A DNA stretch of 64,000 nt, from positions 62,001 through 126,000 of the forward strand of contig JAJDTM010000013.1 of the NCBI GenBank assembly GCA_022827185.1, read 5' to 3'. Position 1 is the stretch's first letter. Each line of letters opens with the position of its first letter. This document shows, one piece after another, positions 44,156 to 58,641 of the stretch. This DNA comes from Candidatus Poribacteria bacterium. GTDB taxonomy: Bacteria > Poribacteria > WGA-4E > WGA-3G. A program made the translations under genes and the position numbers. Under the pieces are notes generated by a model. That model saw nothing but the letters and a program-made list of their open reading frames with translations, was not told the origin of the DNA and did no database searches.

Positions 44156-45418
44156 ATGAAAAGAAGAAATTGGTTAGTTACCACAGTTTTGATGGCATCA
44201 ATTTTCGGCTTATGCATAAGCCTTCTAAGTTGTGCCACAAATAAAATAAATCTGCGAAAAACACTGGATACGAAGGAAACCCTACAGGTGCAGGCATATT
44301 GGGATCCAATTGCGGATGCCTCGCTCGGTTTACCCGATCATACGCCAAAACATGCCGCGCTATTTAAAAACCTTTCACCCGCGCACCCCAGTCAAGAATA
44401 TGACGTAGACGCTTTCAAAGCCTTTTTTCCGAAAGGATCTGTTCCTGTCGGACACGTGTGGGAACTGGATATGAACGAAGTCCTCCCGTTTCTCCGCCAG
44501 TTTCACGCCGGAGCAACCGCGGAGATGCATATCAACCCAGGTGGAGAAGGTGCCATAGAGGTATTTGGTCGGCGTATAGTTCTGATAAAGGTAGGTTTGG
44601 AGTCAGAGGGTGCGTTCGCATGTCTTCGCGCACTTTCGGCGACTCATGCCGAAATCGTCTTCAGAATTCATGCCGAATTTCTATTGGATGAGGAGGCGCG
44701 TGCCTACTTTACACCCGCACAATTCACCGGACGGTTGATACTCAATCGGAACAGTGGAACGATTCGCGATTTTTGGCTCCATCTCCCACCGCGTAAGACC
44801 AATGTTGACATCAACGCCTTTGGCAGTGCGGATATGGTTTACGTGCCGCGCATGGAACTGATCGCACAAAACGCGCATGACCAGAGTGATATTGCCTGGG
44901 AGACTGCCATTACCGAAAACGAGGTGAAAGACCTGTTAGAGGCTTCCTTCTATAAGTTTTCCGAAATTGAGAGGCTCCCTATTGAGGAGGCTGTTGCACA
45001 AGCACAGGCGGAGAACCGCCCTATTCATGTGATTCTCACCTGGGGTGTGTTTGACGACGAATCGTGCTGAGCGAGCGGTAAAACCTTGAGGACAGTTGTC
45101 CTCTCCGATTCAAAAATCGTAAAATTGCTCAATAAGCACTATGTCAATGTATTCCTTCTGATTCGGGATCTGCGTGAACTTCAGAACGGGACGAAGGACG
45201 AGTTAGTAAGTAAATTCGCAAATACGGTTTCCACAACGTTTGAAGCGGCTGTCGCGCAGGGCGTAGATGGTTCGGTAAACAGTTTTGTACTATCGCCTCA
45301 ATTGGAGTTGATAGGTCATTTACCTTATCAGGATCTAACAAAACCAAACGAGGACATTGAGGTCATTAACGAGACATACCGGACATTTCTAAAGGATGCT
45401 TTGACCAAAAATAGGTAG
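44156..45418 (+). CDS. selN: Selenoprotein N-like lipoprotein, copy 1 (UGA = Sec305)
   Basis: A 420-residue protein if the in-frame TGA at 45068-45070 is read as selenocysteine; otherwise it would stop at residue 304. The N-terminus is a lipoprotein-like signal (lipobox SLLSC, Cys26). The body matches, from memory, human SELENON: VFRIHAEF at about 168-175, FTPAQFTGRLIL, then RPIHVILTWGVFDDESC-U and ASGKTLRTVVLSDSKIVKLL. The SCU motif sits in a thioredoxin-like fold; human SELENON is an ER thiol reductase. Reading continues in frame for 114 codons after the TGA. It lacks the C-terminal domain of copies 2-4, and the residue after Sec is Ala rather than Gly. AGGAG lies before the ATG. It heads the plus-strand array. 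Confidence 0.88.
45088..45103 (+). promoter_or_regulatory. SECIS-like hairpin, SelN copy 1
   Basis: GAGGAC-AGTT-GTCCTC forms a perfect six-pair stem with a four-base loop, beginning 17 bases after the in-frame TGA. This position and a small apical loop with G near its start fit the bacterial SECIS recognised by SelB. A smaller GGT-AAA-ACC stem lies between TGA and the hairpin. Confidence 0.8.
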
Positions 45419-45474
45419 GTGCGATTTGGAAGGAAACACAGAAGTCACACTTAAGCGAAAGGTAGGAAGCTATC

Positions 45475-46947
45475 ATGTTACTAACACTCATACGCCAACA
45501 GTTCCTCTCTCATCTGATGAGTGCTCGCTTTTTTGCTGCCGTTATCATTACTCTCCTTCTTGTTGTTTTCAATACGCTTGTGCTTATTGATGAATACGAG
45601 CGTCGACTCGCTGACTACAACATTCAAAAAACAGTTCATCGCCAGAAAGTGGAGGCGGCAGAAACTTATTCAACTTTAGAACTGTTTATTGAACGTCCAC
45701 CAAATCCGTTGAGTCTCTTTAGTACAGGATTAGAAAAACAGCTTGGAAGTACGGTTGAAATCTATTATAGCCTTGTCCCGTTGATTTCCAATGCTTCCGC
45801 GCGATACTTAGCGAACCCGTTTTTAAACCTTTTTTTAAAGATTGATCTTGCCTTTATCTTTCAAGTGGTACTGAGCCTACTTGCCCTGCTTTTTGGCTAC
45901 GATGCCATTTCTGGAGAACGGGAAACTGGCACCTTGCGGCTCCTTGTCTCCCAGCCAGTATCGCGAAGTTCTCTCCTTGTTGGTACATATATCGGTGCTA
46001 TGATTTGCCTGTTACTGCCATTGCTTTTGAGCCTGTTGTTGATTCTGATTCTATTATCAACAACCAGTTCAATTCAACTCAGTCCGGATGACTTCCTCCG
46101 AATCAGCGGGATTTTCCTAACGACAATTGCGTATGTCTCCATTTTCTATCTGATTGGACTCTTTATTTCCACCATGTCTCAACGGACCGCCACCTCGGCC
46201 ATGCTCTGTATGTTCTCATGGGTAGTTCTGGTCATCCTTTACCCAACCTGGAGTCAATTTACCATGAATCCAGTCGGCGATACGCACGCTGAAAAATCCT
46301 CAGTAGAGCGACAAGTAAATCAGATTTGGGAAGAAGTTGACAGAGAAAAACGCCGGTTCGTAGCAAACAGCCCACTTATGGGCAAGCCACCATGGTTTAA
46401 TCTCACGGGAAAAGGCGCGGTCGCTTGGGGAGACGGACGATATAAGGTAAATCTGGAATTGGATCCACAATCAGAGGAACTCGTTCCTCATGTCCAAGAG
46501 TATTATAAGACCATAAGCGCATTGGAAATCCGCTTAGCCAAAAAAACAGCTCTGATCCGAGAACAAAGTTTGGAAAGGACAGATATTCAACAATCAAGGT
46601 GGGATGAACTTTTGATGAAGCTAAGTCCGGCAAGTCTCTATAGGTTTGCAACAGCCGCTTGGGTGGGAACCGATTTGGATGGCATGCTTGATTTCGCTGA
46701 AGCCACACAGAAGTACCATCAAGCACTCATTAACTATTTTTACCAAGAGGATGCCTTTGCCAGTCGACTCTGGTTTGCTTCTGACAAGGGTATTGTGGAT
46801 TGGTCGAACTTGCCCCAGTTTCACTTTGATCGTAAAGATGTCTGGGTCAACGCACACCGGGCGATTCCTGAACTTTTTGTATTGTTAGTCATGAATCTGG
46901 TTCTCTTTGGCGGCACAGTTCAGGTTTTTATCAGAATGGATGTATAG
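45475..46947 (+). CDS. ABC-2 type permease
   Basis: A 490-residue membrane protein. One helix lies at about residues 18-40 (FFAAVIITLLLVVFNTLVLI), then a polar domain of about 100 residues, then the cytoplasmic motif FGYDAISGERETGTLRLLV, which marks ABC-2 permeases, and a cluster of helices. A second large polar domain at about 260-440 and a final helix ending FGGTVQVFIRMDV complete it. It is homologous to the permease at 48267. No ATPase is encoded nearby. AGGAAG precedes the ATG. The gene follows SelN copy 1 by 56 bases, so it is probably in the same transcript. Confidence 0.85.
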   Translation: MLLTLIRQQFLSHLMSARFFAAVIITLLLVVFNTLVLIDEYERRLADYNIQKTVHRQKVEAAETYSTLELFIERPPNPLSLFSTGLEKQLGSTVEIYYSLVPLISNASARYLANPFLNLFLKIDLAFIFQVVLSLLALLFGYDAISGERETGTLRLLVSQPVSRSSLLVGTYIGAMICLLLPLLLSLLLILILLSTTSSIQLSPDDFLRISGIFLTTIAYVSIFYLIGLFISTMSQRTATSAMLCMFSWVVLVILYPTWSQFTMNPVGDTHAEKSSVERQVNQIWEEVDREKRRFVANSPLMGKPPWFNLTGKGAVAWGDGRYKVNLELDPQSEELVPHVQEYYKTISALEIRLAKKTALIREQSLERTDIQQSRWDELLMKLSPASLYRFATAAWVGTDLDGMLDFAEATQKYHQALINYFYQEDAFASRLWFASDKGIVDWSNLPQFHFDRKDVWVNAHRAIPELFVLLVMNLVLFGGTVQVFIRMDV

Positions 46948-47112
46948 CGTATTAATTTAAATGCTGTAAGAAGGTAAAAGTTTTCACATCTGTAGCAAAT
47001 CACGTGGCATCGAAAAAACCACAAAGATTGAATTTGTGAACCATTTTAAAAGCCAAACGCCACTATTTAACTGGCATATCAACTACCTTTTATACAAGAG
47101 GAGATACGGAAA

Positions 47113-48141
47113 ATGAAGGTACTAAAATTGGCAAGTCTCGTTCTGCTGCTGAGTGTTCCCCTGTTTGAGACAAACAGCGGGGCACAAAGTTTGTCTCAAA
47201 CGGTTAAAGCCCGTATTGATGTTCAGCAAGGGGCAATAAATGATATGGTGTTTTCTACGGATGGCAGACATCTCGCGATTGCGAGTACAAAAAGTCTCCA
47301 ACTCTATGATGCCAAAACTTACAAAGAGCTTATCTCGTTTACCGGACATACAGATTCGGTGTTAGCGGTAGCACTCTCTCCCGACGGTAAGCTTCTGATT
47401 AGCGGCGGTCAGGACGAGACGGTCCGGCTGTGGAGAACTGACACCGGTGAACTCGTTCGCACCCGCGAAGAACATTGGGGACACGTCAATGCTCTCGCAT
47501 TCTCTGCCGATGGCGAAATGTTTTGGAGTGGGTGTAACAACGACAGAGAGATTCGATCTTGGTTTTCGTATGACGGCGGCAAGAGCAGCAAAAGGCAGGG
47601 TACCCTACCCTACATGAAGCCTAAAGATGTATACACTGCAACGGTGTTTTCACCCAACGCCGAAATCTTAGTAAGGGCAAGCACCGCCACTGCCCCCGAA
47701 CTCGGAGATGGGTTCCTTATTTTCTTTATTTCCCTGCACGGCACGAGAACTTCAACTATTTTCAGAGCAACGCATGCCGATCCGGTCAATGTCTTAACCC
47801 TTCATGCCGACGGTAATCTCCTCGCCACTGGCAGCGCGGATAAGACAATCCAGTTGTGGAATATAAAAGACACGACGCAACCGAGCCATATCCTCTCTAA
47901 ACACACCAGAGGTATCACGGCTATAGCATTTTCAGACCCTGGGAAACTGATTGCCAGTGGAAGTTCGGACAAAACCATTCAGTTGTGGGATGTTGAGACA
48001 GGGAAACCTCTTGATACGCTTACAGAACATACAAGCATGATTACTGCTGTAACCTTTTTTGGCGATAAAACACTTGCCAGTGGGAGCTCCAACGGCACAG
48101 TTATCCTGTGGAACCTAAAGGGAACCGATTTAACTGAGTAA
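47113..48141 (+). CDS. Secreted seven-repeat WD40 protein (copy a)
   Basis: A 342-residue exported protein: signal peptide (LKLASLVLLLSVPLFETNSGA), then seven WD40-type repeats (SLQLYD, TVRLWR, EIRSWF, a degenerate fourth, TIQLWN, TIQLWD, TVILWN). A single propeller would result, probably in the periplasm or at the cell surface. It is a paralogue of the proteins at 52607 and 58845: all share the unusual EIRSWx third repeat and the degenerate fourth repeat. AGGAGATACGG precedes the ATG. It is flanked by two homologous ABC-2 permease genes, so it may be part of their complex (inference). Confidence 0.88.
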   Translation: MKVLKLASLVLLLSVPLFETNSGAQSLSQTVKARIDVQQGAINDMVFSTDGRHLAIASTKSLQLYDAKTYKELISFTGHTDSVLAVALSPDGKLLISGGQDETVRLWRTDTGELVRTREEHWGHVNALAFSADGEMFWSGCNNDREIRSWFSYDGGKSSKRQGTLPYMKPKDVYTATVFSPNAEILVRASTATAPELGDGFLIFFISLHGTRTSTIFRATHADPVNVLTLHADGNLLATGSADKTIQLWNIKDTTQPSHILSKHTRGITAIAFSDPGKLIASGSSDKTIQLWDVETGKPLDTLTEHTSMITAVTFFGDKTLASGSSNGTVILWNLKGTDLTE

Positions 48142-48266
48142 CTAAAATGCGGTTTACTGGTCAACAAAATATGCCGATGCTAAAACCTTGGACTTTAGAA
48201 CACGGATACAGACTCCAGTGGGGACAGCGTATGTCAATACATTCAGACAGATTATAAGGCGGATCA

Positions 48267-49703
48267 ATGATGATTTGGCACATCCTTAAAAGAGAATTAT
48301 TTGACCATATCAATAGTTTGCGCTTCGCATTAACTACGTTCATTATGATTGCATTAATGGTAACCAATGCTATTGTGCACCTCCAGAAACACGCAGACCA
48401 AATCCAAGAGTATTCCAAGAACGTTACTGTATCCATCAACAAGTTGAAAGCGCAGACGCGGCTGTACACGTTGATCCAAAGGGGACCTGGTGAACTGTAC
48501 AAACGTCCATCTGCGCTCTCCTTCATTGCCAATGGTGGTGATGCCTTTCTTCCGAAGCTTGTTATAGATGATGATTCTTGGACGGCAGGCGACGTGAAAA
48601 GCATAGCGACTGTAGGTTACCCCGAAACAAAACAGAAATCAAAAAATTTACGGCCGCCGGGCGTACCCTTGGATTGGGTATTTATCATCACGTATTTATT
48701 CTCTTTTATTCCAATTTTATTTTCCTTTGATGCCCTTTCAGGCGAACGAGAACATGGAACGCTCCGATTGTGTCTTGCCAATCCGATTTCTAGGTCCCTG
48801 ATAGTGGTAAGTAAATTCCTGGGGATACTCATCGCCCTCGTTCTTCCATTCACTTTTGCCTTTTTGTTGAACATAACCATTCTTTCTACATCGCCTTGGA
48901 TTCAATTTGCTCCTGCAGACTGGGCACGCCTTGCGCTGGTCTTTCTCATTGTTTGTTGCTATGCCTGCATCTTCATTGCGGTCGGGTTGATGGTTTCTGC
49001 TCGGTTAGAGAGACGAATGAGCCTGGTCGTGCTCCTGTTGATTTGGGTAATAGTGGTGGTTTTTATGCCCCTAACGCTGGGGACACTCGCAGTGAAATGG
49101 TCAACACCCATTCAAACGGTGCATCAGTTTCGCGCGACAAAGAGAGAATTTATAAATAACACCAGAACAGAAAATAGTCGTAAATGGATCCAAATGAAAC
49201 AACACATTGACCGGAATAAAGCTCAGAAAGATGAACTATTGTCTCTCCTGAGGTTCAAGATGGAGTGGGTGAACTTTGATAGAAATATTCGAGAGGATCT
49301 AAATCGGGAGTACTTAATGGCACAAATTAAACAAGTACAGCAAGCACGATTCGTGTGCCGTTTATCTCCAGCAGCGACCGTTCAATACACACTCGAATCA
49401 ATGGCAGCCACTGGATTGAATCGACACCGACAATTCGTGGAAAACGTGCAGCTTTATACAAAACGATTTCGACAATTCATCGTCGAAATCGATAGCATTG
49501 ATTCCGAAAGTCTCCATCTCATTGGTATTCCCGAAGGCATGTCTAATAAGCCAATCACCCCTGAACAGATTCCGATATTTGAGGATAAACTGACTTTTAG
49601 AGACTCGTTCAACTCAGCCTTAGTAGATATGTCGCTGCTCGTTTTATTTGCCGGTGTGTTTCTTTCAGGAGCATGTCTCTTTTTCTTACGCGCAGACGTA
49701 TGA
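48267..49703 (+). CDS. ABC-2 type permease
   Basis: A 478-residue membrane protein, homologous to the one at 45475. It has an N-terminal helix (FALTTFIMIALMVTNAIVHL), a polar loop, a helix (WVFIITYLFSFIPILFSFDA), the motif LSGEREHGTLRLCLANPISRS, several helices to about residue 285, a second polar domain and a terminal helix ending SGACLFFLRADV. ABC-2 permeases move lipids, polysaccharides, peptides or drugs, or anchor gliding machinery. No cognate ATPase lies within the window. Together with its partner it may form a heterodimeric channel around the WD40 protein encoded between them (inference). Confidence 0.85.
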   Translation: MMIWHILKRELFDHINSLRFALTTFIMIALMVTNAIVHLQKHADQIQEYSKNVTVSINKLKAQTRLYTLIQRGPGELYKRPSALSFIANGGDAFLPKLVIDDDSWTAGDVKSIATVGYPETKQKSKNLRPPGVPLDWVFIITYLFSFIPILFSFDALSGEREHGTLRLCLANPISRSLIVVSKFLGILIALVLPFTFAFLLNITILSTSPWIQFAPADWARLALVFLIVCCYACIFIAVGLMVSARLERRMSLVVLLLIWVIVVVFMPLTLGTLAVKWSTPIQTVHQFRATKREFINNTRTENSRKWIQMKQHIDRNKAQKDELLSLLRFKMEWVNFDRNIREDLNREYLMAQIKQVQQARFVCRLSPAATVQYTLESMAATGLNRHRQFVENVQLYTKRFRQFIVEIDSIDSESLHLIGIPEGMSNKPITPEQIPIFEDKLTFRDSFNSALVDMSLLVLFAGVFLSGACLFFLRADV

Positions 49704-49731
49704 ACCGGTGATTGGACAATTTTACGCCAAG

Positions 49732-49873
49732 TTGGGAACCGATTGCGGATGCATCGCTCGGAATACCCAGTTACTCACAGAGGCACGAAATTCTTTTTAC
49801 CGACGCACCCGAGTCAAGAATATGAGGTAGACGCTTTCAAAACCTTTCTTCAAACTGAAAACGCAAAAAATTA
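49732..49873 (+). pseudogene. Decayed fragment of a fifth SelN-like gene
   Basis: The bases GAACCGATTGCGGATGCATC, continuing GCTCGGAATACCC, match the SelN copy 1 coding region around 44300-44330 (peptide PIADASLG). Further on, GAGTCAAGAATATGAGGTAGACGCTTTCAAAACC matches SQEYDVDAFKA of copy 1, but in another frame, with about 11 bases lost between. The fragment then stops. Next to it AAAAAATTAGGCAACCGTTTT repeats the sequence upstream of copy 1. This is a broken duplicate. Confidence 0.75.
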
Positions 49874-50141
49874 GGCAACCGTTTTCTCAATATAGCGCGT
49901 CACTATATATTGAGCGAGTAAATTGTGTTTCCAGCGTTTATTTTCAGCAGCCAGTGCGGGCATATCCAAACCTATTCTGATTGCTGAAAGGGTTGCGTAG
50001 CAACCCGATCTGATCCGGTCTTAATCGTGATGGGCGAATCACTTAATGTCTATGAAATCCGGCAGCTAATAACAGAATTACATTAAAACCTAAAGAGACT
50101 TCAGAAATCTCAGTTGAGTTTCACAATAAAAGGAAAATAAA
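49874..50141. other. Non-coding gap with hairpin
   Basis: No gene is seen. AAAAAATTAGGCAACCGTTTT, found also before SelN copy 1, spans the left edge. A perfect hairpin GGGTTGC-GTA-GCAACCC lies at 49990-50006. The right end holds AAGGAAAATAAA, the ribosome binding site of the next gene. Confidence 0.5.
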
Positions 50142-50654
50142 ATGAAACGCGTTTTGATACTTTTTCTGCTGATGAGTGGAATGCTAAGCTTTATAGCAAT
50201 CTCATTAGAAGGTATACCTGTCCAAGAATCCTCAGAACATCCACAGCGGATCAAAATCCTTCTTGACCTTGCAGGTGAAAGTGAACTTATACCGGTAGCC
50301 CAAGAACAGCTGCGTGAAGCATTTAGTAAAACCGAAGATATAGATGTCGTTACGGACATTGAAGCAGGCGTATCCTATGTGATCTCCGTTGTTCTCGTGG
50401 AAGCACGCGTTGGCGCAAATAAGCAAAAAACCGGAAATATCGCTGCCTGTATTCAGTATATTGACTATTTTGACAATAGTATTCTCAAACCGGATGTTGC
50501 TGTGTCAAATTGGGAACGTGTTAACCATCTCACAGTAAACTTGATTGAACATTCCCAGACAGGTTTGCACTTATTTCCTAAAAACGATTTAGAAAATATG
50601 ATGAGCGGTGTAGTTTCCAAGTTTCAGAAACTATTTTTGGAAAAGGAAGAATAA
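50142..50654 (+). CDS. Small secreted protein of unknown function
   Basis: A 170-residue protein I do not recognise. It has a signal peptide (VLILFLLMSGMLSFIAIS) and then a predicted alpha/beta domain (RIKILLDLAGESELIPVAQEQLREAFSKTEDIDVVTDIEAGVSYVISVVLVEARV). The pattern of a helix, then D-V-x-V-x-D and a Y-V-I-x-V-V-x-V-E strand, resembles small periplasmic domains in stress-response or secretion systems, but I cannot name a family. It lies between the decayed SelN copy and SelN copy 2 and, like them, is on the plus strand, so it may belong to the same transcript. AAGGA precedes the ATG. Confidence 0.7.
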   Translation: MKRVLILFLLMSGMLSFIAISLEGIPVQESSEHPQRIKILLDLAGESELIPVAQEQLREAFSKTEDIDVVTDIEAGVSYVISVVLVEARVGANKQKTGNIAACIQYIDYFDNSILKPDVAVSNWERVNHLTVNLIEHSQTGLHLFPKNDLENMMSGVVSKFQKLFLEKEE

Positions 50655-50806
50655 AACAAGACTTACGCAAACACTCATGGGTAATTCTAATTTCTCAGGG
50701 CCCGGTAGAATTTGCTTTACATTTGTGATCTGCATTCCTAATCGCACTGGACATTGTTCACAAATTAATGAATTAAATTGTTAATCTTCATTTAAGGAGA
50801 CAAGAA

Positions 50807-52501
50807 ATGAAAACCTTTGCTGTTGCTGTCCTTATCCTAATCATGATGAGTGGACAACTCAACGCCGACAACCACTCGGCAGCGAGCAACAAAATTAAAC
50901 TTAAGCTTGATGACACTTCTGAGGTGTCTGTCCAGGGCTTTATTGCGCCGATTGGAGATACTGTGTCCAATTCCGGTAGGGACTGGCCCGCTTTGACAAA
51001 TATGCGGGTTGTTGCACCGGAAAAGCAGTATCCGGCATCGGTTTTTCACGCTTTTCTGCCAAGCCAATTGGCTTTTCTTCCAAGTAAACGGGTTTCGGTG
51101 GGTGAACTCTGGAAGGTCAAGCCGGATGGGGTACTGGAATTGCTGCGGCAGCTGCACCCCAATCCGAGTGTGAATATGCATATTAATACGGGAGATTCGT
51201 ATGGGCTGTGGGCATGCTTACGTGCTTATAATGATGAGTTTGCCGACATCGCGTTTCGTATCCATGCAGAATTTGTCTTTGAGGATGGTTGGTTCACACC
51301 TTCCCAGTTTGCGGGACATCTTGTGATTGATCGAGCGAAAGGGCGCGTCGCGTTTTTCGTAATGCGCGTTCCGGGGGGTCCGGTCAACTTTGATTTCAAT
51401 CGGATAATAGATGGCAGCCGTGTAGCGGGTGCAGGTTTTTGTTCGCAAGTCGAACTTCGCGCTGGCCCGCAGGAGATTCTGGAAAATGTCGAATTCACAG
51501 AAGCGATTACCCAAGAAGCTGCGGAACGCGCCTTGATACTCCGCTTCTATAAATCCCAACAAATTAATTGGGTACAACCGGACCAAGTCTTGGAGATGGC
51601 ACACACCCAACAGAAACCGATTCACGCTATATCTATAGATGGTCCCTTGGATAATGAGTCGTGCTGAGGGAGCGGCAAAAGCCTGAGGACAGGTGTCCTC
51701 AACGATAACCGTGTTATTAAATTCTTGAACGAAAACTTCATCAATGTTTGGATATCGAATGTAGAATTAGAGCGCACGCCCTTTAAACAGAAATTCATGG
51801 GACTCAGACAGCAGCAAGGCTTCAAACCGTTTGACAAAACGCGCCCGTTAGCACAAGCCATCATGAAAGGCTGGAAGAAACACTCACCCGCAGATTCCTT
51901 GGTGCTATCAACGGAACTTGAACTGATGGGAAGACTTCCCGTCAATGAACGTTCTTCACCCTATAATGGTGCCAAAGGGTATCTTGTATTTCTCCAAGAA
52001 TCCTTGGACAGAAAGCTCCCAGGGTTGGTCGAGAAATCCTCAGAACCGCAACCCAAAGATTGGGATGCTCACCTCGAAACCGCCGTCGAATCAGGTGTTA
52101 TTGTAGACACGGGTTTGAGCGTTGTGCTTACCGGTGAACATTCCGAGAAAGAAATTCTCAGTGTTTTTCGGACATCTGAGACTGAGTCTCAAGGTTACAC
52201 ACTCATTGAGATTGATGCGACAGCCTTTAAAGAGGGTGGCGTGCTTATGATTGATGTTTGGGTCGGGGAATCTGAAGTTTCAGGGTCGTTTGACCTGTTT
52301 GCTGCGGATACTACAGAACTTGTGCCTGACAATGCCCTTGTCTCCGTACGGGATATTCCAACGAATCAGAGAGAAGTTATCAAGTATCCTTTTGATCGGG
52401 GTGGAGTCTTTAAGTTAGGTGCTATTGGTAACGCCAGCAAGAAGGGAAAAATTAACGGGTTCCTCGCAAAAATTTCTGTAGAACCGACTGCTGCTAAATG
52501 A
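50807..52501 (+). CDS. selN: Selenoprotein N-like protein, copy 2 (UGA = Sec287)
   Basis: A 564-residue exported protein with the in-frame TGA at 51665-51667 read as selenocysteine. Order: signal peptide (to about residue 20, LNA-DN), N-terminal SELENON-like domain with FRIHAEF at 150-156 and WFTPSQFAGHLVID, then PIHAISIDGPLDNESC-U-GSGKSLRTGVLND. The latter matches the SCUG segment of human SELENON. A thioredoxin-like region follows (IKFLNENFINVW to about residue 400), then a C-terminal domain at about 437-560 (EILSVFRT, YTLIEIDATAFKEGG, SFDLF). This last domain is shared with copies 3 and 4 and the sigma factor at 57307. AAGGAG precedes the ATG. Confidence 0.92.
51685..51700 (+). promoter_or_regulatory. 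SECIS-like hairpin, SelN copy 2
   Basis: GAGGAC-AGGT-GTCCTC, with a six-pair stem and the loop AGGT, begins 17 bases after the TGA. A flanking T-A pair can extend it. The GG in the loop is the base pair pattern expected of bacterial SECIS elements. A GGC-AAAA-GCC stem lies between TGA and hairpin. Confidence 0.85.
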
Positions 52502-52516
52502 CAACTGATAATTGAC

Positions 52517-52585
52517 AGGACTTACGCAGCGTCCTTTGCTGACGAGGTTTTAAACCTCACCAGCGGCGTGTGGGCCGTAGGTACT
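52517..52585. repeat. AGGACTTACGCA element, one clear end
   Basis: AGGACTTACGCA begins 16 bases after the stop codon of SelN copy 2. A GAGGTT-TTA-AACCTC hairpin follows at about 52544-52558. The right end (CCGTAGGTACT) is only a weak match to the inverted end. A similar left end (AAGACTTACGCA) lies at about 50658 just after the small secreted gene. Confidence 0.5.
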
Positions 52586-52606
52586 CAATTGAAAAGGATA
52601 CGAAAA

Positions 52607-53656
52607 ATGAAGATGACCAGATTAACAAGTTTTATGCTCCTTTTAACCCTTGCTATGTTTCTCGTGAACGGTTTTGCCGAGGGGTTGCCTAAATACGCTA
52701 TCACTCAAATTAATACCGGTCAGGGACCTATTAATGCTATGACATACTCTCAATCCACGAATCAACTTGCGATAGCTGCCGCGAATAATATCCATATCCA
52801 TGATGCGGATACCCACAAAGAATTGATGGTGCTTGCTGGACATACGGATTCGGTGCAGGCAGTCGCCTTTTCTTTGAACGGCAAATTGATCGTCAGTGGC
52901 AGCTCAGACAAGACAGTGCGGTTGTGGGAAGCAGAGACGGGAAAACTCAGACGTGCCCGCGACGAACACACAGCACCTGTTAATATTGTCGCCTTTTCTG
53001 CGAAGGGCGATAAGTTTTGGAGTGCAAGTAGCAAAAACAACATGCTTCGGTCGTGGTACTCGCGTGATGGGGGCCGTTGGAGTTCCAGTACCTCCTCATC
53101 AGATATTGAGAAGTCAATCACGGCAGCGGCGTTCTCACAGTCCGGTAAAATTTTTGCAAAGGCTGTTGAACTGACAATGGCTGTTAAAGACAAGTTTCAA
53201 TTCGCTGTTTTCTTATCTGAGATAGACCCTTACAAAGATTTTGAACCTATTCTCACAAAACATAGAGAAAAAATCGTCGCTTTAACGATTTCTCCCTCCA
53301 GCGAGTTTATCGCAACTGGGAGTTCTGACTGGACAATAGAGGTCTGGAAAATTACAGATACGGAGCCACTACGGGCGGATACGGATCTCGGAGATCCGCT
53401 GTGGATTCTCAAAGGACACGCAGGAACAGTCACTACAGTGGCGTTCTCCCCGAACGGCAAAATACTTGTGAGTGGTGGTGCTGACCAAAGGGTCCGATTG
53501 TGGGACCTCACAACTGGACAACACCTTCACACCTTCTCGAACCATACAAGCAAAATCAGTGCTGTCGGATTCGTGAGAGACGATATGCTTGCCAGTGGGA
53601 GTTCAGATGGCACCGTTTTCATTTGGAATCTGGATAAAATCGTCTCAACGGATTAG
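52607..53656 (+). CDS. Secreted seven-repeat WD40 protein (copy b)
   Basis: A 349-residue exported propeller protein: signal peptide (FMLLLTLAMFLVNGFAEG), then seven repeats (NIHIHD, TVRLWE, MLRSWY, a degenerate fourth, TIEVWK, RVRLWD, TVFIWN). It is a paralogue of copy c at 58845 and less closely of copy a at 47113; all share the INTGQGPINAM-type opening and the DEHTAPVNxVAFS insertion. I choose the ATG at 52607, with AAGGA eight bases upstream; a longer reading starts inside the preceding repeat. It lies between SelN copies 2 and 3, so each SelN gene from copy 2 on is accompanied by a WD40 gene or another SelN gene. Confidence 0.88.
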   Translation: MKMTRLTSFMLLLTLAMFLVNGFAEGLPKYAITQINTGQGPINAMTYSQSTNQLAIAAANNIHIHDADTHKELMVLAGHTDSVQAVAFSLNGKLIVSGSSDKTVRLWEAETGKLRRARDEHTAPVNIVAFSAKGDKFWSASSKNNMLRSWYSRDGGRWSSSTSSSDIEKSITAAAFSQSGKIFAKAVELTMAVKDKFQFAVFLSEIDPYKDFEPILTKHREKIVALTISPSSEFIATGSSDWTIEVWKITDTEPLRADTDLGDPLWILKGHAGTVTTVAFSPNGKILVSGGADQRVRLWDLTTGQHLHTFSNHTSKISAVGFVRDDMLASGSSDGTVFIWNLDKIVSTD

Positions 53657-53795
53657 CGTTTATGTTATAATCTACATACGCAGACGTGCAAGATAACAGA
53701 CCTACAGAGTTTTTCACAAACACGACTTTTGTTAGTTAATCTCGCGTGAATCTCTACAATTTTTTCAACGTGTGCTAACTGTAAGGAGATTAAAA

Positions 53796-55502
53796 ATGAA
53801 AACCTTAACCATTATCTCACTCGTTCTAATAGTGATGAGTGGACAACTCTACGCCGATAAGCACTCGGCAGCGAACGATAAAATTACACTTAAACTTACG
53901 GATACTTCAGAAGTCTCAGTAAAAGGTTACATCGCTCCAATTGAGAATACTGGCTCCGATTTCCATGTGAGATGGGACGCATTAGCAAATCTGCGGGTTG
54001 CTGAACCCGAAAAACAGCACCCGACATCGGTTTTCCAATCTTTTCTCCCAACTAAACCGGTATCGGTGGGTGAACTCTGGGCATTAGATGCAACGGGTGT
54101 CCTCGCTTTGCTCAGGCAACTGCATCCGAACCCCAATTTGTTCATGCACATCAATTCAGGGGATTCGTATGGTTTATGGGGGTGCCTGCGTGCTTACAAT
54201 GCTCAATACGCCGACATTGTGTTTCGGATTCATGGGGAGTTCAGACTCGAAGATGGGTGGTTTACACCGTCGCAGTTTACCGGACATCTGGTGATTGACC
54301 GAACCGAGGAGAAGGTCGCTTTCTTTGAGATGTACGTCCCTGAAGGTGTCATAAACTTTGATGTTAACTGGAGGCAAGATAAAAACGACTCCCATTTTCA
54401 TACGACTACCGGTTTTTGCTCGAAAATTGAACTCCGCACTGGGAATCAAAATCTACTTGGAAACACCAAATTTACAGATACCATTACCCAAGAAGCAGCG
54501 GAACGCGCCTTGATACATAAATTCTATAGATCGGAACGCATTAACTGGGTGCCGCCGGAACAGGTATTGGAGATGGCAGAAGCACAGCAGAAACCGATTC
54601 ATGTGATCTCTATAGATGGGCCTTTGACAGATGAGTCGTGCTGAGGGAGCGGCAAAAGCCTGAGGGCAGGTGTCCTCTCCGACAACCGTGTTATTAAATT
54701 CTTGAACGAAAATTTCATCAATGTTTGGGTATCAAACGTCGAATTAGGACGTACCCGGAATAAGCGAGCCTTCATTGCGGCGAGAATCCAGCAAGGCTTT
54801 AAACCATTCGACAAAACGCATCCATTAGCAGAAGCAATCATCACGGGATGGAAACCGAGATCTCCCGCAGACTCTTTAGTAATCTCGACGGGTCTTGATG
54901 TGATGGGCAGGCTATCGGTCAATGAACGAACTTCGCCATACAACGGCGCGAAAGGTTACCTTTTATTTCTTGAAGAATCCTTAGATGAGAAACGTCCCGG
55001 ATTGCCTGAGGTTGCCCGGCAACCGCCATCAATGGATTGGAATACTTTCCTCGAAACTGCCGTCGAATCCGAGGCTATTGCTAATGACGGTTTGCGCGTG
55101 GTGCTTACCCGTGAGCATCCTGCACAAGAGGTTCTCAGCATTTTTCGTGCAGCCGGACAAGGCTTTCAAGACTATACCGTCGTGGAAATTGATACGACCG
55201 CCTTTAAAGAGGGTGGTGTGCTGACGATTACGATCTCAGTAGGCGATGCTGAATCTGCTGGCTCGTTTGATCTTTATGATGGTGAGACTGAACTCCCCAC
55301 AGAAGGGCCACCTCGTGGTGCGCTTACCTCGGCATGGGATGTTCCCGCCAACACGCAGGGTAAAATCGAGTATCCTTTTGAGCAGGGAAAAGTTTTCAAG
55401 TTGGGGGCTACTGGTAGTTGGCTCAGTGAGAAAGGCAAAGTCAACGGTTTCCTCGCTGAATTTTCCGTGGAACCCACACCAGAAACGAGCGACGAAAATT
55501 AA
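53796..55502 (+). CDS. selN: Selenoprotein N-like protein, copy 3 (UGA = Sec283)
   Basis: A 568-residue exported protein with the in-frame TGA at 54642-54644. Signal peptide to about residue 20, SELENON-like domain (FRIHGEF, WFTPSQFTGHLVID, VPEGVINFDVNW), PIHVISIDGPLTDESC-U-GSGKSLRAGVLSD, a thioredoxin-like region (VIKFLNENFINVWVSN), and the C-terminal domain (VLSIFRA, YTVVEIDTTAFKEGG, KVNGFLAEFSVE). AAGGAG precedes the ATG at 53796. The downstream part is open for 285 codons after TGA and conserved among copies, so the TGA is not a decay mark. The next gene is copy 4, 58 bases on. Confidence 0.92.
54662..54677 (+). promoter_or_regulatory. SECIS-like hairpin, SelN copy 3
   Basis: GAGGGC-AGGT-GTCCTC, 17 bases after the TGA. 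Relative to copy 2 one A-T pair... is replaced by G-T (the fifth stem pair), so pairing is kept as a wobble pair while the coded residue changes from Thr to Ala. The loop AGGT is unchanged. Confidence 0.85.
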
Positions 55503-55560
55503 CCATAGGTCCGGTAGGTATAGTTTCATAAATATTTTAGATAATTGTGAGGAGATAAGC

Positions 55561-57228
55561 ATGAAAACCTTAAGCATTGCGCTACTCATTCTCATAGCGA
55601 TGAGTGGACACCTTAATGCCGACAACCCCTCGGCAGTAGATAACAAAATTACACTTAACCTTGATGACACCTCAGAAGTCTTAGTGAAAGGCTCCATCGC
55701 TCTGGCTGAGGAGAGTTTGTCCGATACTTTTAAGCAGTGGGACGCGTTGGTGAATCTTCGGGTTGCTGAACCCGAAAAGCAGCATCCCACCTCGGTTTTC
55801 CAAGGATTTCTTCCAAAACAGCCGGTTTCGGTTGGCGAACTCTGGGTGCCAGATATGATGGGAGTTGTCCCCTTGCTCAAGCAACTGCATCCGAATCCCA
55901 ATTTCTTTCTTCATATCAATTTCGGGGATTCGTTCGGTTTGTGGGCGTGTCTGCGGGCTTACAACGACCAATATGCCGACATCGTGTTCCGGATTCACGC
56001 CGAATTTAGACTCGAAGATGGGTGGTTTACACCTTCACAGTTTACTGGACATCTGGTGATTGACCGAATTGCGGAGAAGGTCGCTTTCTTTGAGATGTAC
56101 GTCCCTAAAGGTGTCATAAACTTTGATGTTAACTGGAAGCGGGACAAGAATGCCTCCCATCATATTACAAGTACCGGTTTTTGCCCGAAAATGGAACTCC
56201 GTGCGGGGGCACAAGACCTTTTGGAACACATTAAATTCACAGCATCCATTACCTCAGCGGAAGCAGAACGCGCACTGATACTGCGCTTCTACAAGTCGCA
56301 ACAAATTAACTGGGTCCCGTTAGCGCAGGTCCTGGAAAGGGCACAAGCAGAACAGAAACCGATGCATGTGATCTCTATAGACGGGCCTTTGACAGATGAA
56401 TCGTGCTGAGGGAGCGGCAAAAGCCTGAGGGCAGGTGTCCTCTCCTACGACGAAAATATTGAATTCATGAACGAAAATTTTATCAATGCTTGGGTGTTGA
56501 ACGGTGAATTAGAACCCTCGCCTCGTAAGAAAGCCTCTATGGCACTGCTACGCGAGCACGACTTCAAACCGCTTGACAAAACGATTCCATTAGCGCAAGC
56601 AATCAAGAAAGGATGGAAGGAACACTCGCCTGCGGATTCTTTGGTGTTCTCGCCGGACCTTGAACTGATGGGTAGACTCCCTGTCAATGACCGCCATCCA
56701 CCATACGACGGTGCAAAGGGTTATCTTTTATTTCTCCAAGAATCCTTGGACGGAAAACTCCCTGGGTTACGTGAGGATGCTCCGATACATTGGGATACAC
56801 TCCTTGAAACGGCTGTCGAATCCGGTGCGATGGTAGATGACGGTTTGCGGGTTACGCTTACGGATGAACATTCCGAGCAAGAGGTCCTCAGCGTCTTTCG
56901 GACATCAGAGACCGACGCGCAAAATTATACCGTTGTTGAGATTGATGCGACAGCGTTTGAAGATGGCGGCGTGCTTGTTATTGATGTTTGGGTTGGGGAA
57001 TCCGAAGTGTCTGGTTCGTTTGACCTGTTTTCCGGTGACGCTACAGAATTCGCGCCTGCCAACGCGCTTGTTTCCGCACGGAATATTCCAACGAACCAGA
57101 GGGAAGTTATCAAGCATTCTTTTGACGGCAGCCAATTCTTTAAGTTAGGGGCTATCGGTAATTCCAGTGAAAATGGAAAAATCAACGGTTTTCTTGCGAA
57201 AATCTCCGTCGAAAGTGATTCAAATTGA
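55561..57228 (+). CDS. selN: Selenoprotein N-like protein, copy 4 (UGA = Sec283)
   Basis: A 555-residue exported protein with the in-frame TGA at 56407-56409. Signal peptide (TLSIALLILIAMSGHLNA), SELENON-like domain (FRIHAEFRLEDGWFTPSQFTG), PMHVISIDGPLTDESC-U-GSGKSLRAGVLSY, thioredoxin-like region (FMNENFINAWVLN), C-terminal domain (VLSVFRTSETDAQNYTVVEI, then DATAFEDGG). It is closest to copy 3 before the TGA and closest to copy 2 in the C-terminal domain, which suggests recombination between copies. GGAGATAAGC precedes the ATG at 55561. A longer reading from 55246 overlaps copy 3 and is rejected. The membrane-tethered sigma gene follows by 78 bases. Confidence 0.92.
56427..56442 (+). promoter_or_regulatory. 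SECIS-like hairpin, SelN copy 4
   Basis: GAGGGC-AGGT-GTCCTC begins 17 bases after the TGA, as in copy 3. Downstream bases diverge from copy 3 immediately after the stem, while the stem and loop are identical. Confidence 0.85.
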
Positions 57229-57306: not shown

Positions 57307-58641
57307 ATGAAAAATGATGATGCCCAACTGATCCAACGCGTCCTTGCAGGCGAGCAAGATGCTTTTGCGAAATTAGTGAAAAAATACCAGAAGCCTGTCC
57401 ACGCGCTTGCCTGGCGGAAAGTAGGCGATTTTCACATCGCTGAAGAGATTACGCAGGACACTTTCCTACAAGTCTACAAAAAACTGGGGACCCTGAAGGA
57501 TCCACATCGGTTTGAAGGGTGGCTGTATAGAATCGCTTCGCGCCAATGCCAAGCATGGCTTAGAAAGAAGCGGATGCAAACGCAATCGTTGGATGAAACC
57601 GACATCGACCTGATAGACAACACGACCTATTCTCAATACATCGCTGAAGAACAGGCGAAAGCCGCAACAGAAGCACAGCGCAGTATCGTCCATAAATTGC
57701 TTGCCCGGCTACGGGAAAGTGAACGTACCGTCGTCACACTCCACTACTTCGGGGAGATGACATGTGAAGAGATTAGCCGATTTTTAGGAGTATCCGCAAG
57801 CACGGTTAAGAGTCGCCTCCGTCGCGCACGATTTCGCCTGAAGAAAGCGGAACCGATGATCCGGGAAGCATTGGAAGGGTTCCAAATTAGGGCGAGTCTC
57901 ACCGAGAATATCATGCAAGAGATCTCACGTATTGAACCGGTAATCCCTTCTGGCGGTAAACCGTTTGTGCCGTGGGCGATCGCCGCTTCAACCCTTGCGC
58001 TTGTAGTGATGGCACTTGGTGTCAGCAATCAGTACCAGAAACGCTTTCAACAGCCCTACAACCTTGATGCTACATCAGAAATGAGGGTAGAACTCGTTGA
58101 TGCACCGATTGTTCTGAATCTTGCATTGAAACCGGATGTGCGAAATCAACTCGGTAGATCCACTACATCTAATAAAGGTAGCGGGTTCACTACAAGCACA
58201 AATCAGTCCGAATACGTGCCAAGATTCCTCACCGCACAGACGAAGAAGGTAACACTCAACGATGAGAACCCATCGCAACAGGTTTTGAGTGTCTTCCGAA
58301 CCCCAGAAACCACCTACCAAGATTACACCGTTGTTGAGATTGACACGACAGCGTTTAAAGACGGTGGCACACTCACTATTGATCTCAGGATCGGTCGTGC
58401 AGAGGCAGCAGCGGCTTTCATCCTTTTTGCCAGCGACACGGAACTCAACTCGGACGGGATGCCTAAAGTTATTCTTACCTCAGCATCGGGTATTTCTCCC
58501 GGTAAAGTTGGAAAACTCACGCATAGTTTTGATAGAGGTGCACACTTTAAGGTGGCGGCTACCGGTAATGCATTCAGTGGGAAGGGGAAGGTCAACTCTT
58601 TTCTCGCGACGATCTCCATAGATGCTAAGACTGATAACTGA
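57307..58641 (+). CDS. Membrane-tethered ECF sigma factor with SelN-type C-terminal domain
   Basis: A 444-residue protein. Residues about 1-90 are sigma-70 region 2 (FHIAEEITQDTFLQVYKKL, GWLYRIASRQCQAWLRKK) and about 130-182 are region 4 (LRESERTVVTLHYFGEMTCE, SASTVKSRLRRAR). LTENIMQEIS leads to one transmembrane helix at about 221-239 (PWAIAASTLALVVMALGVS). The part beyond the membrane contains RFQQPYNLDATSEM and, at 313-438, a domain homologous to the C-terminal domain of SelN copies 2-4 (QVLSVFRT, YTVVEIDTTAFKDGG, GKVNSFLATISID). So the sigma domain is cytoplasmic and the shared domain extracytoplasmic. It follows SelN copy 4 by 78 bases. A signalling link is inferred, not shown. Confidence 0.92.
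   Translation: MKNDDAQLIQRVLAGEQDAFAKLVKKYQKPVHALAWRKVGDFHIAEEITQDTFLQVYKKLGTLKDPHRFEGWLYRIASRQCQAWLRKKRMQTQSLDETDIDLIDNTTYSQYIAEEQAKAATEAQRSIVHKLLARLRESERTVVTLHYFGEMTCEEISRFLGVSASTVKSRLRRARFRLKKAEPMIREALEGFQIRASLTENIMQEISRIEPVIPSGGKPFVPWAIAASTLALVVMALGVSNQYQKRFQQPYNLDATSEMRVELVDAPIVLNLALKPDVRNQLGRSTTSNKGSGFTTSTNQSEYVPRFLTAQTKKVTLNDENPSQQVLSVFRTPETTYQDYTVVEIDTTAFKDGGTLTIDLRIGRAEAAAAFILFASDTELNSDGMPKVILTSASGISPGKVGKLTHSFDRGAHFKVAATGNAFSGKGKVNSFLATISIDAKTDN

What the first reader, a model, noticed from the sequence alone, without database searches (positions are those of the whole stretch)
44156..57228. Array of four selenoprotein N-like genes, each interrupted by an in-frame UGA
Four plus-strand paralogues (44156, 50807, 53796, 55561) each have a long ORF that ends ...ESC-TGA and a second ORF continuing in the same frame with GSGKSLR or ASGKTLR. 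In all four the frame is kept for 114-285 further codons and the downstream protein is conserved (FLNENFINxW). The segment FRIHAEF ... FTPxQFTGxL ... DDESC-U-xSGKTLR matches human SELENON (recalled sequence DDQSCUGSGRTLR). I recall reports of SELENON-like genes in Poribacteria but cannot verify them; a tandem array of four in one locus is striking. A normal annotation splits each into two wrong genes.
Basis: partly seen in the sequence, partly recalled or inferred. Interest (0 to 1): 0.95.

Follow-up and report, generated by a model that had tools for sequence, protein, structure and literature searches.

The report
Bacterial selenoprotein N genes in arrays
A Poribacteria genome carries fifteen genes related to selenoprotein N, a protein known from animals and algae, each with an in-frame UGA codon and a predicted RNA hairpin behind it, so that the selenium machinery encoded in the same genome would likely read the UGA as selenocysteine, while public gene predictions mostly end such proteins at that point.

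Summary
Four plus-strand genes (44156-45418, 50807-52501, 53796-55502, 55561-57228) are each one frame with a single internal TGA. Their core is homologous to vertebrate SELENON (profile-profile E 1.6e-48, 349 columns), with the TGA at the Sec column. The genome has selA, selB, tRNA-Sec and a TGA-containing selD. Of 174 copies covering the site (window plus 76 loci), 173 have TGA, 1 Ser, 0 Cys. A bacterial SECIS-type hairpin follows: 159 of 159 distinct sites meet three structural criteria, 139 a fourth; synonymous codon choice there is the most constrained of the gene. The window holds 4 of the genome's 15 copies; eight more form a second array. In the phylum 64 of 84 genomes carry 1-17 copies, all in one order; 302 genomes outside gave only three marginal hits. 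The predicted fold puts SC-U in a thioredoxin domain. The EF-hand is absent, so I file it as a bacterial branch of the SELENON core family, not SELENON proper. A 2026 inventory of 119 prokaryotic selenoprotein families lists no SelN. Some relatives have replaced Sec by Gly. Function (selenol oxidoreductase, partly exported) is inferred; the direction of transfer between animals and Poribacteria is open.

The parts
44156..45418 (+). SELENON-like gene 1 (420 aa with Sec); hydrophobic, lipoprotein-like N terminus (by eye); no extra C-terminal domain
   Evidence: 152 bits by BLASTP to coelacanth SELENON (gene 4: 139 bits)
45068..45070 (+). in-frame TGA, Sec codon of gene 1
45088..45103 (+). predicted bacterial SECIS hairpin of gene 1 (6 bp, loop AGUU, 23 nt after UGA)
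45475..46947 (+). ABC-2 family permease
   Evidence: Pfam PF12679
47113..48141 (+). WD40-repeat protein
48267..49703 (+). second ABC-2 family permease
49733..49847 (+). decayed 5' fragment of a fifth SELENON-like copy of the gene 1 type, in two frames
   Evidence: tblastn E 3e-11
50807..52501 (+). SELENON-like gene 2 (564 aa with Sec), signal-peptide-like N terminus (by eye), C-terminal beta-sandwich domain; ends in a TGA stop
51665..51667 (+). in-frame TGA, Sec codon of gene 2
51685..51700 (+). predicted bacterial SECIS hairpin of gene 2 (loop AGGU)
52568..53656 (+). WD40-repeat protein, DNA-similar to the 47113 and 58845 genes
53796..55502 (+). SELENON-like gene 3 (568 aa with Sec; GTG start at 53772 also possible)
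54642..54644 (+). in-frame TGA, Sec codon of gene 3
54662..54677 (+). predicted bacterial SECIS hairpin of gene 3 (loop AGGU)
55561..57228 (+). SELENON-like gene 4 (555 aa with Sec); ends in a TGA stop
56407..56409 (+). in-frame TGA, Sec codon of gene 4
56427..56442 (+). predicted bacterial SECIS hairpin of gene 4 (loop AGGU)
57307..58641 (+). ECF-type sigma factor whose C-terminal part (58237-58629) is the same domain as the C-terminal domain of genes 2-4
   Evidence: Pfam Sigma70_r2 and r4; domain match E 3.3e-36

Best explanation
These four genes belong to a bacterial branch of the selenoprotein N core family, and the UGA inside each is predicted to be decoded as selenocysteine by the SelA, SelB, SelD and tRNA-Sec that the same genome encodes, through a predicted hairpin 23 nucleotides downstream. 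Shown here: the homology to SELENON, the TGA at the Sec column, the sel genes, and the sequence constraint on the hairpin. Inferred: the Sec residue sits beside an invariant Cys (SC-U) at the active-site loop of a thioredoxin-fold domain and likely works as a vicinal Cys-Sec selenol-disulfide oxidoreductase on substrate proteins. The four window copies, which start with signal-like stretches, would work in the periplasm or on the membrane, and the eight C38-array copies, which lack such stretches, would work in the cytoplasm. The N-terminal SELENON-specific domain and, in genes 2-4, an added C-terminal beta-sandwich domain would select or hold the substrates, and the tandem copies would be a set of such enzymes with different partners. 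The next-door ECF sigma factor shares that C-terminal domain and may regulate them.
Against: No expression, proteomic or 75Se evidence. No Cys homologue was seen, so the usual Sec/Cys pairing criterion is not met; instead some relatives have lost Sec: 12 of 15 full-length or odd public proteins have Gly and 1 Thr at the site, and one Ser copy is among the 174, so Sec is dispensable or changes role there. selA over the cut-off is also in 15 of 20 genomes without the gene, and 8 of 64 genomes with the gene lack it, two of these (G034, G061) 95-96% complete. A few matches carry further stops (6 rows in the list, and a second TGA in C44:502844), so some copies may be decaying. 20 of 159 sites miss the energy criterion. 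No Pfam or NCBIfam model is over threshold. The place of SC-U on the thioredoxin active site is read from secondary structure, not from a residue alignment. Signal peptides were judged by eye. Substrates unknown.
Confidence: 0.88

Rival explanations
1. The TGA is an ordinary stop: split genes, pseudogenes or sequencing errors.
For: Public gene callers end most of these proteins there. One decayed copy exists in the window, and a few relatives have further stops (6 rows of the list).
Against: 173 of 174 covered copies share the same TGA, and none of these 173 has a second TGA in the core; protein conservation and a constrained hairpin continue past it; five single-contig genomes have 3-13 copies.
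Confidence: 0.02
2. The organism has reassigned UGA generally (for example to Trp or Gly), so no selenocysteine is involved.
For: UGA reassignment is known in some candidate phyla (recalled). Gly-bearing relatives exist.
Against: Genes 2 and 4 end in TGA stops; the neighbouring genes are intact under table 11; tRNA-Sec, selA, selB and selD are all present; the TGA lies at one column with a hairpin behind it.
Confidence: 0.01
3. UGA is mainly a switch: under low selenium the N-terminal half (about 280-300 aa) is the working product, and Sec readthrough is a minor, regulated event.
For: The N-terminal domain is conserved up to the UGA; in Gly-bearing relatives the protein is kept while Sec is lost.
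Against: The half after the UGA is also maintained, and codons behind the UGA are strongly constrained; the UGA lies inside the predicted thioredoxin fold, so the short form would hold a broken domain.
Confidence: 0.06
4. It is a real Sec protein of SELENON ancestry but not a thiol oxidoreductase: for example a selenium store, a structural or adhesion protein of the cell surface, or a partner of the ABC-2 permeases and ECF sigma factor.
Against: Cys next to the Sec column in 174 of 174, thioredoxin fold close to AGR2, ERp19 and DsbH, and the reductase behaviour described for SEPN1 (abstract and passages of PMC7474598).
Confidence: 0.15

Closest known systems
Vertebrate selenoprotein N (SELENON, SEPN1)
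   Same: Core of about 350 columns, FRIHAEF and FTPxQFTG-type motifs, D[QE]SC-U-[GA]SG[KR]xLR, thioredoxin-like domain round the Sec (PMC12839072 and PMC7474598 passages). SELENON is almost only Sec-form in algae as well (PMC7539508, passage).
   Different: No EF-hand region; a bacterial in-frame SECIS-type hairpin; often a C-terminal beta-sandwich domain; many paralogues per genome; some relatives with Gly for Sec.
Known bacterial selenoproteins with bSECIS (FdhA, SelD and others)
   Same: selA, selB, selC and selD; UGA with a hairpin 16-37 nt downstream and G in the loop.
   Different: The family is not among the 119 of Table 1 of PMC13188914 (section 7, parts 1-2) and matches no NCBIfam model; no Cys counterpart seen; 15 copies of one family in one genome.
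DsbH, AGR2/AGR3 and ERp19 thioredoxin-fold oxidoreductases
   Different: Vicinal SC-U in place of CxxC (CxxC recalled as the usual motif), behind a SELENON-specific N-terminal domain; 14-18% identity.
Thioredoxin reductase GCUG motif
   Same: Vicinal Cys-Sec pair, a likeness pointed out for SELENON in PMC12839072 (passage).
   Different: No homology claimed; no flavin or NADPH domain found (Pfam).

Membership tests
SELENON core family | Homology over the SELENON core | tested here: met
   E 2e-45 pairwise and 1.6e-48 by profiles
SELENON core family | Sec codon in the SC-U-[G/A] motif | tested here: met
   TGA in 173 of 174, Cys before it in 174 of 174
SELENON core family | Thioredoxin-like domain round the Sec | tested here: met
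SELENON proper (eukaryotic) | Luminal EF-hand | tested here: not met
   No EF-hand in the four proteins and no counterpart of that region in the alignment. Pfam is a weak test: it finds the vertebrate EF-hand only below threshold, in two of three controls
SELENON proper (eukaryotic) | Type II ER membrane anchor | not testable with these tools
   No ER in bacteria; signal-like N termini of the window copies seen by eye
SELENON proper (eukaryotic) | SECIS in the 3'-UTR | not tested
   A bacterial in-frame element is present instead
Bacterial selenoprotein genes | selA, selB, selC, selD in the genome | tested here: met
   all over the curated cut-off
Bacterial selenoprotein genes | bSECIS downstream of UGA (loop 3-9, stem 4-16, G in first two loop places, spacing 16-37, MFE at most -7.5) | tested here: met
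   All four window copies meet i-iv; 159 of 159 sites meet i-iii and 139 of 159 i-iv; own genome 15 of 15 and 14 of 15
Bacterial selenoprotein genes | Cys homologues at the Sec place (a usual supporting sign, not a definition) | tested here: not met
   0 Cys of 174; 1 Ser; Gly in 12 and Thr in 1 of 15 full-length or odd public proteins
Bacterial selenoprotein genes | Sec found in the protein | not testable with these tools
   Needs mass spectrometry or 75Se
Thioredoxin/DsbH oxidoreductases | CxxC active site (recalled) | tested here: not met
   The site reads [SAVG]C-U-[GA]

The most novel reading that the evidence does not exclude
Animal selenoprotein N descends from (or gave rise to) this Poribacteria family through gene transfer between sponges and their symbionts. 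The recoding hairpin that lies just after the UGA of vertebrate SELENON mRNA (the SRE named in PMC12839072) would then be the fossil of a bacterial SECIS, and the bacterial copies show the ancestral, calcium-independent selenol reductase to which animals added an EF-hand.
Probability: 0.15. Interest if true: 0.96.

Novelty: new variant of a known kind. Interest (0 to 1): 0.86.

Why it matters
SELENON is a human myopathy protein whose biochemistry is hampered by its being a membrane selenoprotein (discussion passage of PMC7474598). [quoted passage not shown] a 2020 survey adds algae (PMC7539508, passages); the 2026 inventory of prokaryotic families has none (PMC13188914, Table 1). A bacterial branch without EF-hand or ER anchor, in many natural versions including Gly ones, gives material for testing what the core does and where the family came from. 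It also offers a candidate substrate for the enrichment of SelA and SelB seen in sponge symbiont bins (PMC5649159, passage). Public annotation mostly hides it, because the proteins are ended at the UGA.

Tried and rejected
Rejected: sequencing error, plain stop and general UGA reassignment (see rivals). Rfam: no family over threshold in the window; three chance-level matches at E 0.66-8 between 44000 and 57300. PDB by sequence: no credible relative. Pfam and NCBIfam: none over cut-off for the four proteins; Thioredoxin_7 at 15.9 of 27 bits for gene 1 was the only fitting hint. Fold search on gene 3 mainly returned the C-terminal beta-sandwich, so gene 1 without that domain was folded as a second job. 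The N-terminal SELENON-specific domain was barely tested by these lists, so I make no statement on its fold. Promoter-like sites were no more than in shuffles (18 against 20.7); terminator-like ones somewhat more (23 against 14.5, sd 4.0); not used. Co-occurrence with selA in the phylum does not single out this family. Distribution outside Poribacteria: one search examined 386 genomes, 302 of them outside the phylum, with 3 marginal hits (E 5.6e-5 to 8.1e-4);'s rows these cover only model positions 235-377 and have no stop inside. (386 genomes round one of these) added one more marginal hit. The genome-contig scan kept 80 of 104 relatives (76 loci), all titled Poribacteria; the other 24 were not seen. 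Only the best 120 of 1264, 386 and 1809 protein hits were listed. I could not obtain sponge, protist or algal SELENON, so the tree has only vertebrates on the eukaryote side and cannot give the direction of transfer. Whether the ABC-2, WD40 and sigma-factor neighbourhood is conserved elsewhere was not tested.

Papers: searches returned none; others returned lists. PMC13188914: passages, sections 5 and 10, and parts 1-2 of 3 of section 7 with Table 1. PMC3473315: passages and section 12. Passages only: PMC4807772, PMC7016017, PMC7539508, PMC9312934, PMC2398784, PMC12839072, PMC7474598, PMC5649159, PMC9999580, PMC3316567, PMC2375036. Searched inside with no occurrence: PMC12013277, PMC8148124. 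PMC12013261 is not held. The library lacks most subscription papers, so an earlier report may exist elsewhere.
Full report
1. Observation. In the window (C16:62001-126000 of a 6.1 Mb draft genome) four plus-strand genes are each one reading frame with a single internal TGA: 44156-45418, 50807-52501, 53796-55502 and 55561-57228, with TGA at 45068, 51665, 54642 and 56407. Lengths with the TGA read as one residue are 420, 564, 568 and 555 aa; 115, 277, 285 and 272 codons follow the TGA. Genes 2, 3 and 4 are 70-73% identical to each other in DNA. Gene 1 is 32-33% identical to them in protein. Its BLASTN matches to them are 58 bases at 86% with gene 4 and 114 bases at 76% with gene 3, both across the Sec site, and none with gene 2. 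A decayed 5' piece of a fifth copy lies at about 49733-49847.

2. Organism. The named relatives found by the genome scan are all Candidatus Poribacteria. One same-genus genome, G079, can be tied to record OX638316.1, an uncultured Poribacteria, because its match at 1404515 falls on locus L043.

3. Homology. BLASTP against coelacanth SELENON: 33% over 316 columns, E 2e-45 for gene 1; E 2e-39 for gene 4. Gene 1 against lamprey: E 2e-42. Profile against profile (42 Poribacteria rows, 6 vertebrate rows): probability 100, E 1.6e-48, 349 columns. The TGA falls at the Sec place of SELENON, after SC and before [GA]SG[KR]xLR. In the five vertebrate records looked at, the Sec itself is missing or replaced; that human SELENON has Sec in an SCUG motif is from PMC12839072 (passage).

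4. Machinery. The genome has tRNA-Sec (77.5 bits, cut-off 47; 5 of 14 control genomes exceed the cut-off), selB (336.5, cut-off 242.25) about 40 bases from it on C25, selA (609.1, cut-off 267.9) and selD (358.6, cut-off 125), the last with one in-frame TGA. In the phylum selA over the cut-off is present in 71 of 84 genomes. Set by hand against this is 56 of the 64 genomes with SELENON-like genes and 15 of the 20 without. The 8 with the genes but without selA are G027, G029, G032, G034, G048, G060, G061 and G076; G034 and G061 are 95-96% complete, the rest 73-89%. The machinery is wider than this family.

5. Conservation of the UGA. A profile of the four cores run over all frames of the window and 76 loci gave 187 domain hits; 174 cover the Sec column, 13 do not. 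Of the 174, 173 have TGA and 1 has Ser; none has Cys. The residue before is Cys in 174 of 174. The 173 sites are 170 distinct sequences. Of 158 public proteins listed in two searches (the best 120 of each), 143 are 260-310 aa long and end in [DN]E[SA]C, as a protein cut at this UGA would. The other 15: 12 have Gly at the site (11 as EAC-G, one as EAS-G), 1 has Thr, 1 is decayed there and 1 is another fusion that also ends at ESC. The five Gly/Thr rows put in the tree fall in one clade of six rows, nested among Sec forms, with one Sec copy inside it, so Sec was lost there once or more. In the group closest to P0001, 8 of the 13 best matches contain a TGA and 5 contain none. My pattern read the site in 6 of these 13 loci (the other 7 were not matched by it): 3 have TGA, 2 have GGA and 1 has GGC; all 6 keep six stem pairs, and the GGC one has lost the loop G. 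This looks like recent Sec-to-Gly loss with the stem still standing. In the phylum-wide lists nearly every row has one TGA, but 6 rows carry further stops.

6. The hairpin. Mean folding energy of 45-nt windows is lowest at the UGA (-14.0 kcal/mol at offset -3; between -2.6 and -10.2 at offsets -117 to -15 and +15 to +99; 170 sequences). Places +18..+23 pair with +28..+33 round a loop A-G-[G/U]-U (158 distinct sequences). The criteria of the bacterial SECIS model, taken from PMC13188914 section 5, were run on 159 distinct sites: i-iii met in 159, i-iv (hairpin alone at most -7.5) in 139. In the same genes 203 of 667 other Cys codons and 489 of 1388 random codons meet i-iii, but only 10 and 27 meet i-iv. 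Window genes 1-4 have spacing 23 and energies -8.3, -9.9, -7.7 and -7.7. Synonymous usage: of 344 scored codon columns the seven most constrained all lie at +1 to +11 after the Sec (Mann-Whitney p 3.8e-7), with Arg AGR in 171 of 171, Leu CTC in 164 of 171 and Ser AGY in 146 of 146. On 63 diverse rows 96.0% of pair cells are standard pairs (92.7 in shuffles), with 11 two-sided changes (2.0 in shuffles, 0 of 500 as high); slid controls reach 45.5-79.1%. Some copies use a register shifted by one base (loop GGUC), also in the C60 and C44 copies of this genome.

7. Extent. The genome has 15 such genes: 4 here, 8 head to tail on C38:59735-72207, 1 on C60 and 2 on C44, plus nine separate matches to the C-terminal domain, several of them parts of the same C38 genes. 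All 15 Sec sites were read and have TGA; 15 of 15 meet criteria i-iii and 14 of 15 i-iv. One C38 copy ends at a TAA 129 residues after the Sec, without the C-terminal domain; the two TAA that one search gives for it lie at or past that end by my reading. In the phylum 64 of 84 genomes have matches, 1-17 per genome, 446 in all (my sum of the table; the first look caps what is scored, so a lower bound): 64 of 72 genomes in the same order and 0 of 12 outside it. Of six single-contig genomes G046, G079, G081, G082 and G083 have 3, 6, 13, 9 and 9, and G023 none. Among 302 genomes outside the phylum there were only three marginal hits at E 5.6e-5 to 8.1e-4.

9. Neighbourhood. Two ABC-2 permeases, three WD40 proteins and an ECF sigma factor lie among and behind the genes. 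The sigma factor's C-terminal part is the same domain as the C-terminus of genes 2-4 (E 3.3e-36). I did not test whether this neighbourhood is conserved. The C38 array lies behind leuC/leuD-like and IMP-dehydrogenase-like genes (my reading of the translations), and its 8 copies start without the hydrophobic stretch seen in the window.

10. Mechanism. Shown: homology, TGA, sel genes, constrained hairpin sequence. Inferred: Sec insertion; an oxidoreductase with a vicinal Cys-Sec pair; export of the window copies; substrate choice by the flanking domains. SEPN1 itself is described as an ER calcium sensor with reductase activity (abstract and passages of PMC7474598); the bacterial proteins lack the calcium-sensing part, so the redox part would be the older or the shared function.

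11. Novelty. In what I saw, SelN is animal-specific (PMC2375036, passage), present in vertebrates and some invertebrates (PMC12839072, passage) and in some algae (PMC7539508, passages). PMC3473315 section 12 does not name it among families shared with prokaryotes. Table 1 of PMC13188914 (119 families and subfamilies, 2026) lists SELENOW-like, SELENOO-like, GPX-like and deiodinase-like families but no SelN; its two 'selenon' words are selenonucleoside and selenoneine, and Poribacteria is not mentioned. Several families in that table bear NCBIfam numbers, and no NCBIfam model matches the four proteins. Searches for Poribacteria with selenoprotein N or with selenoprotein found nothing.

12. Verdict. 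Real, well supported, and wider than reported: a bacterial branch of the SELENON core family, amplified in one order of Poribacteria.

Noticed in passing
window 49733-49847: Decayed 5' fragment of a fifth SELENON-like copy (gene 1 type), split over two frames, behind an ABC-2 permease.
   Followed up: partly
window 57307-58641: ECF sigma factor fused to the same C-terminal beta-sandwich domain that ends SELENON-like genes 2-4; two C38 genes seem to carry this domain twice.
   Followed up: partly
L123 (C38:54501-74500): Array of eight SELENON-like Sec genes head to tail in about 12.5 kb, without signal-like N termini; one copy ends soon after the core.
   Followed up: partly
L020 (C53:60763-61686): selD has an in-frame TGA itself (AG-U-ASKL context), so SelD is probably a selenoprotein here.
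   Followed up: no
L132, L133, L134, L138, L139: Close relatives of P0001 without TGA; the three sites read (L133, L134, L138) have Gly codons GGC, GGA, GGA with the stem still paired: likely recent Sec-to-Gly loss.
   Followed up: partly
window 47113, 52568, 58845: Three DNA-similar WD40 genes interleaved with the SELENON-like genes; they may have been duplicated together with the array.
   Followed up: no
L069 (domain hit L069|+|1|3930): The only one of 174 copies with Ser at the Sec column (EAC-S-ESGKG).
   Followed up: no
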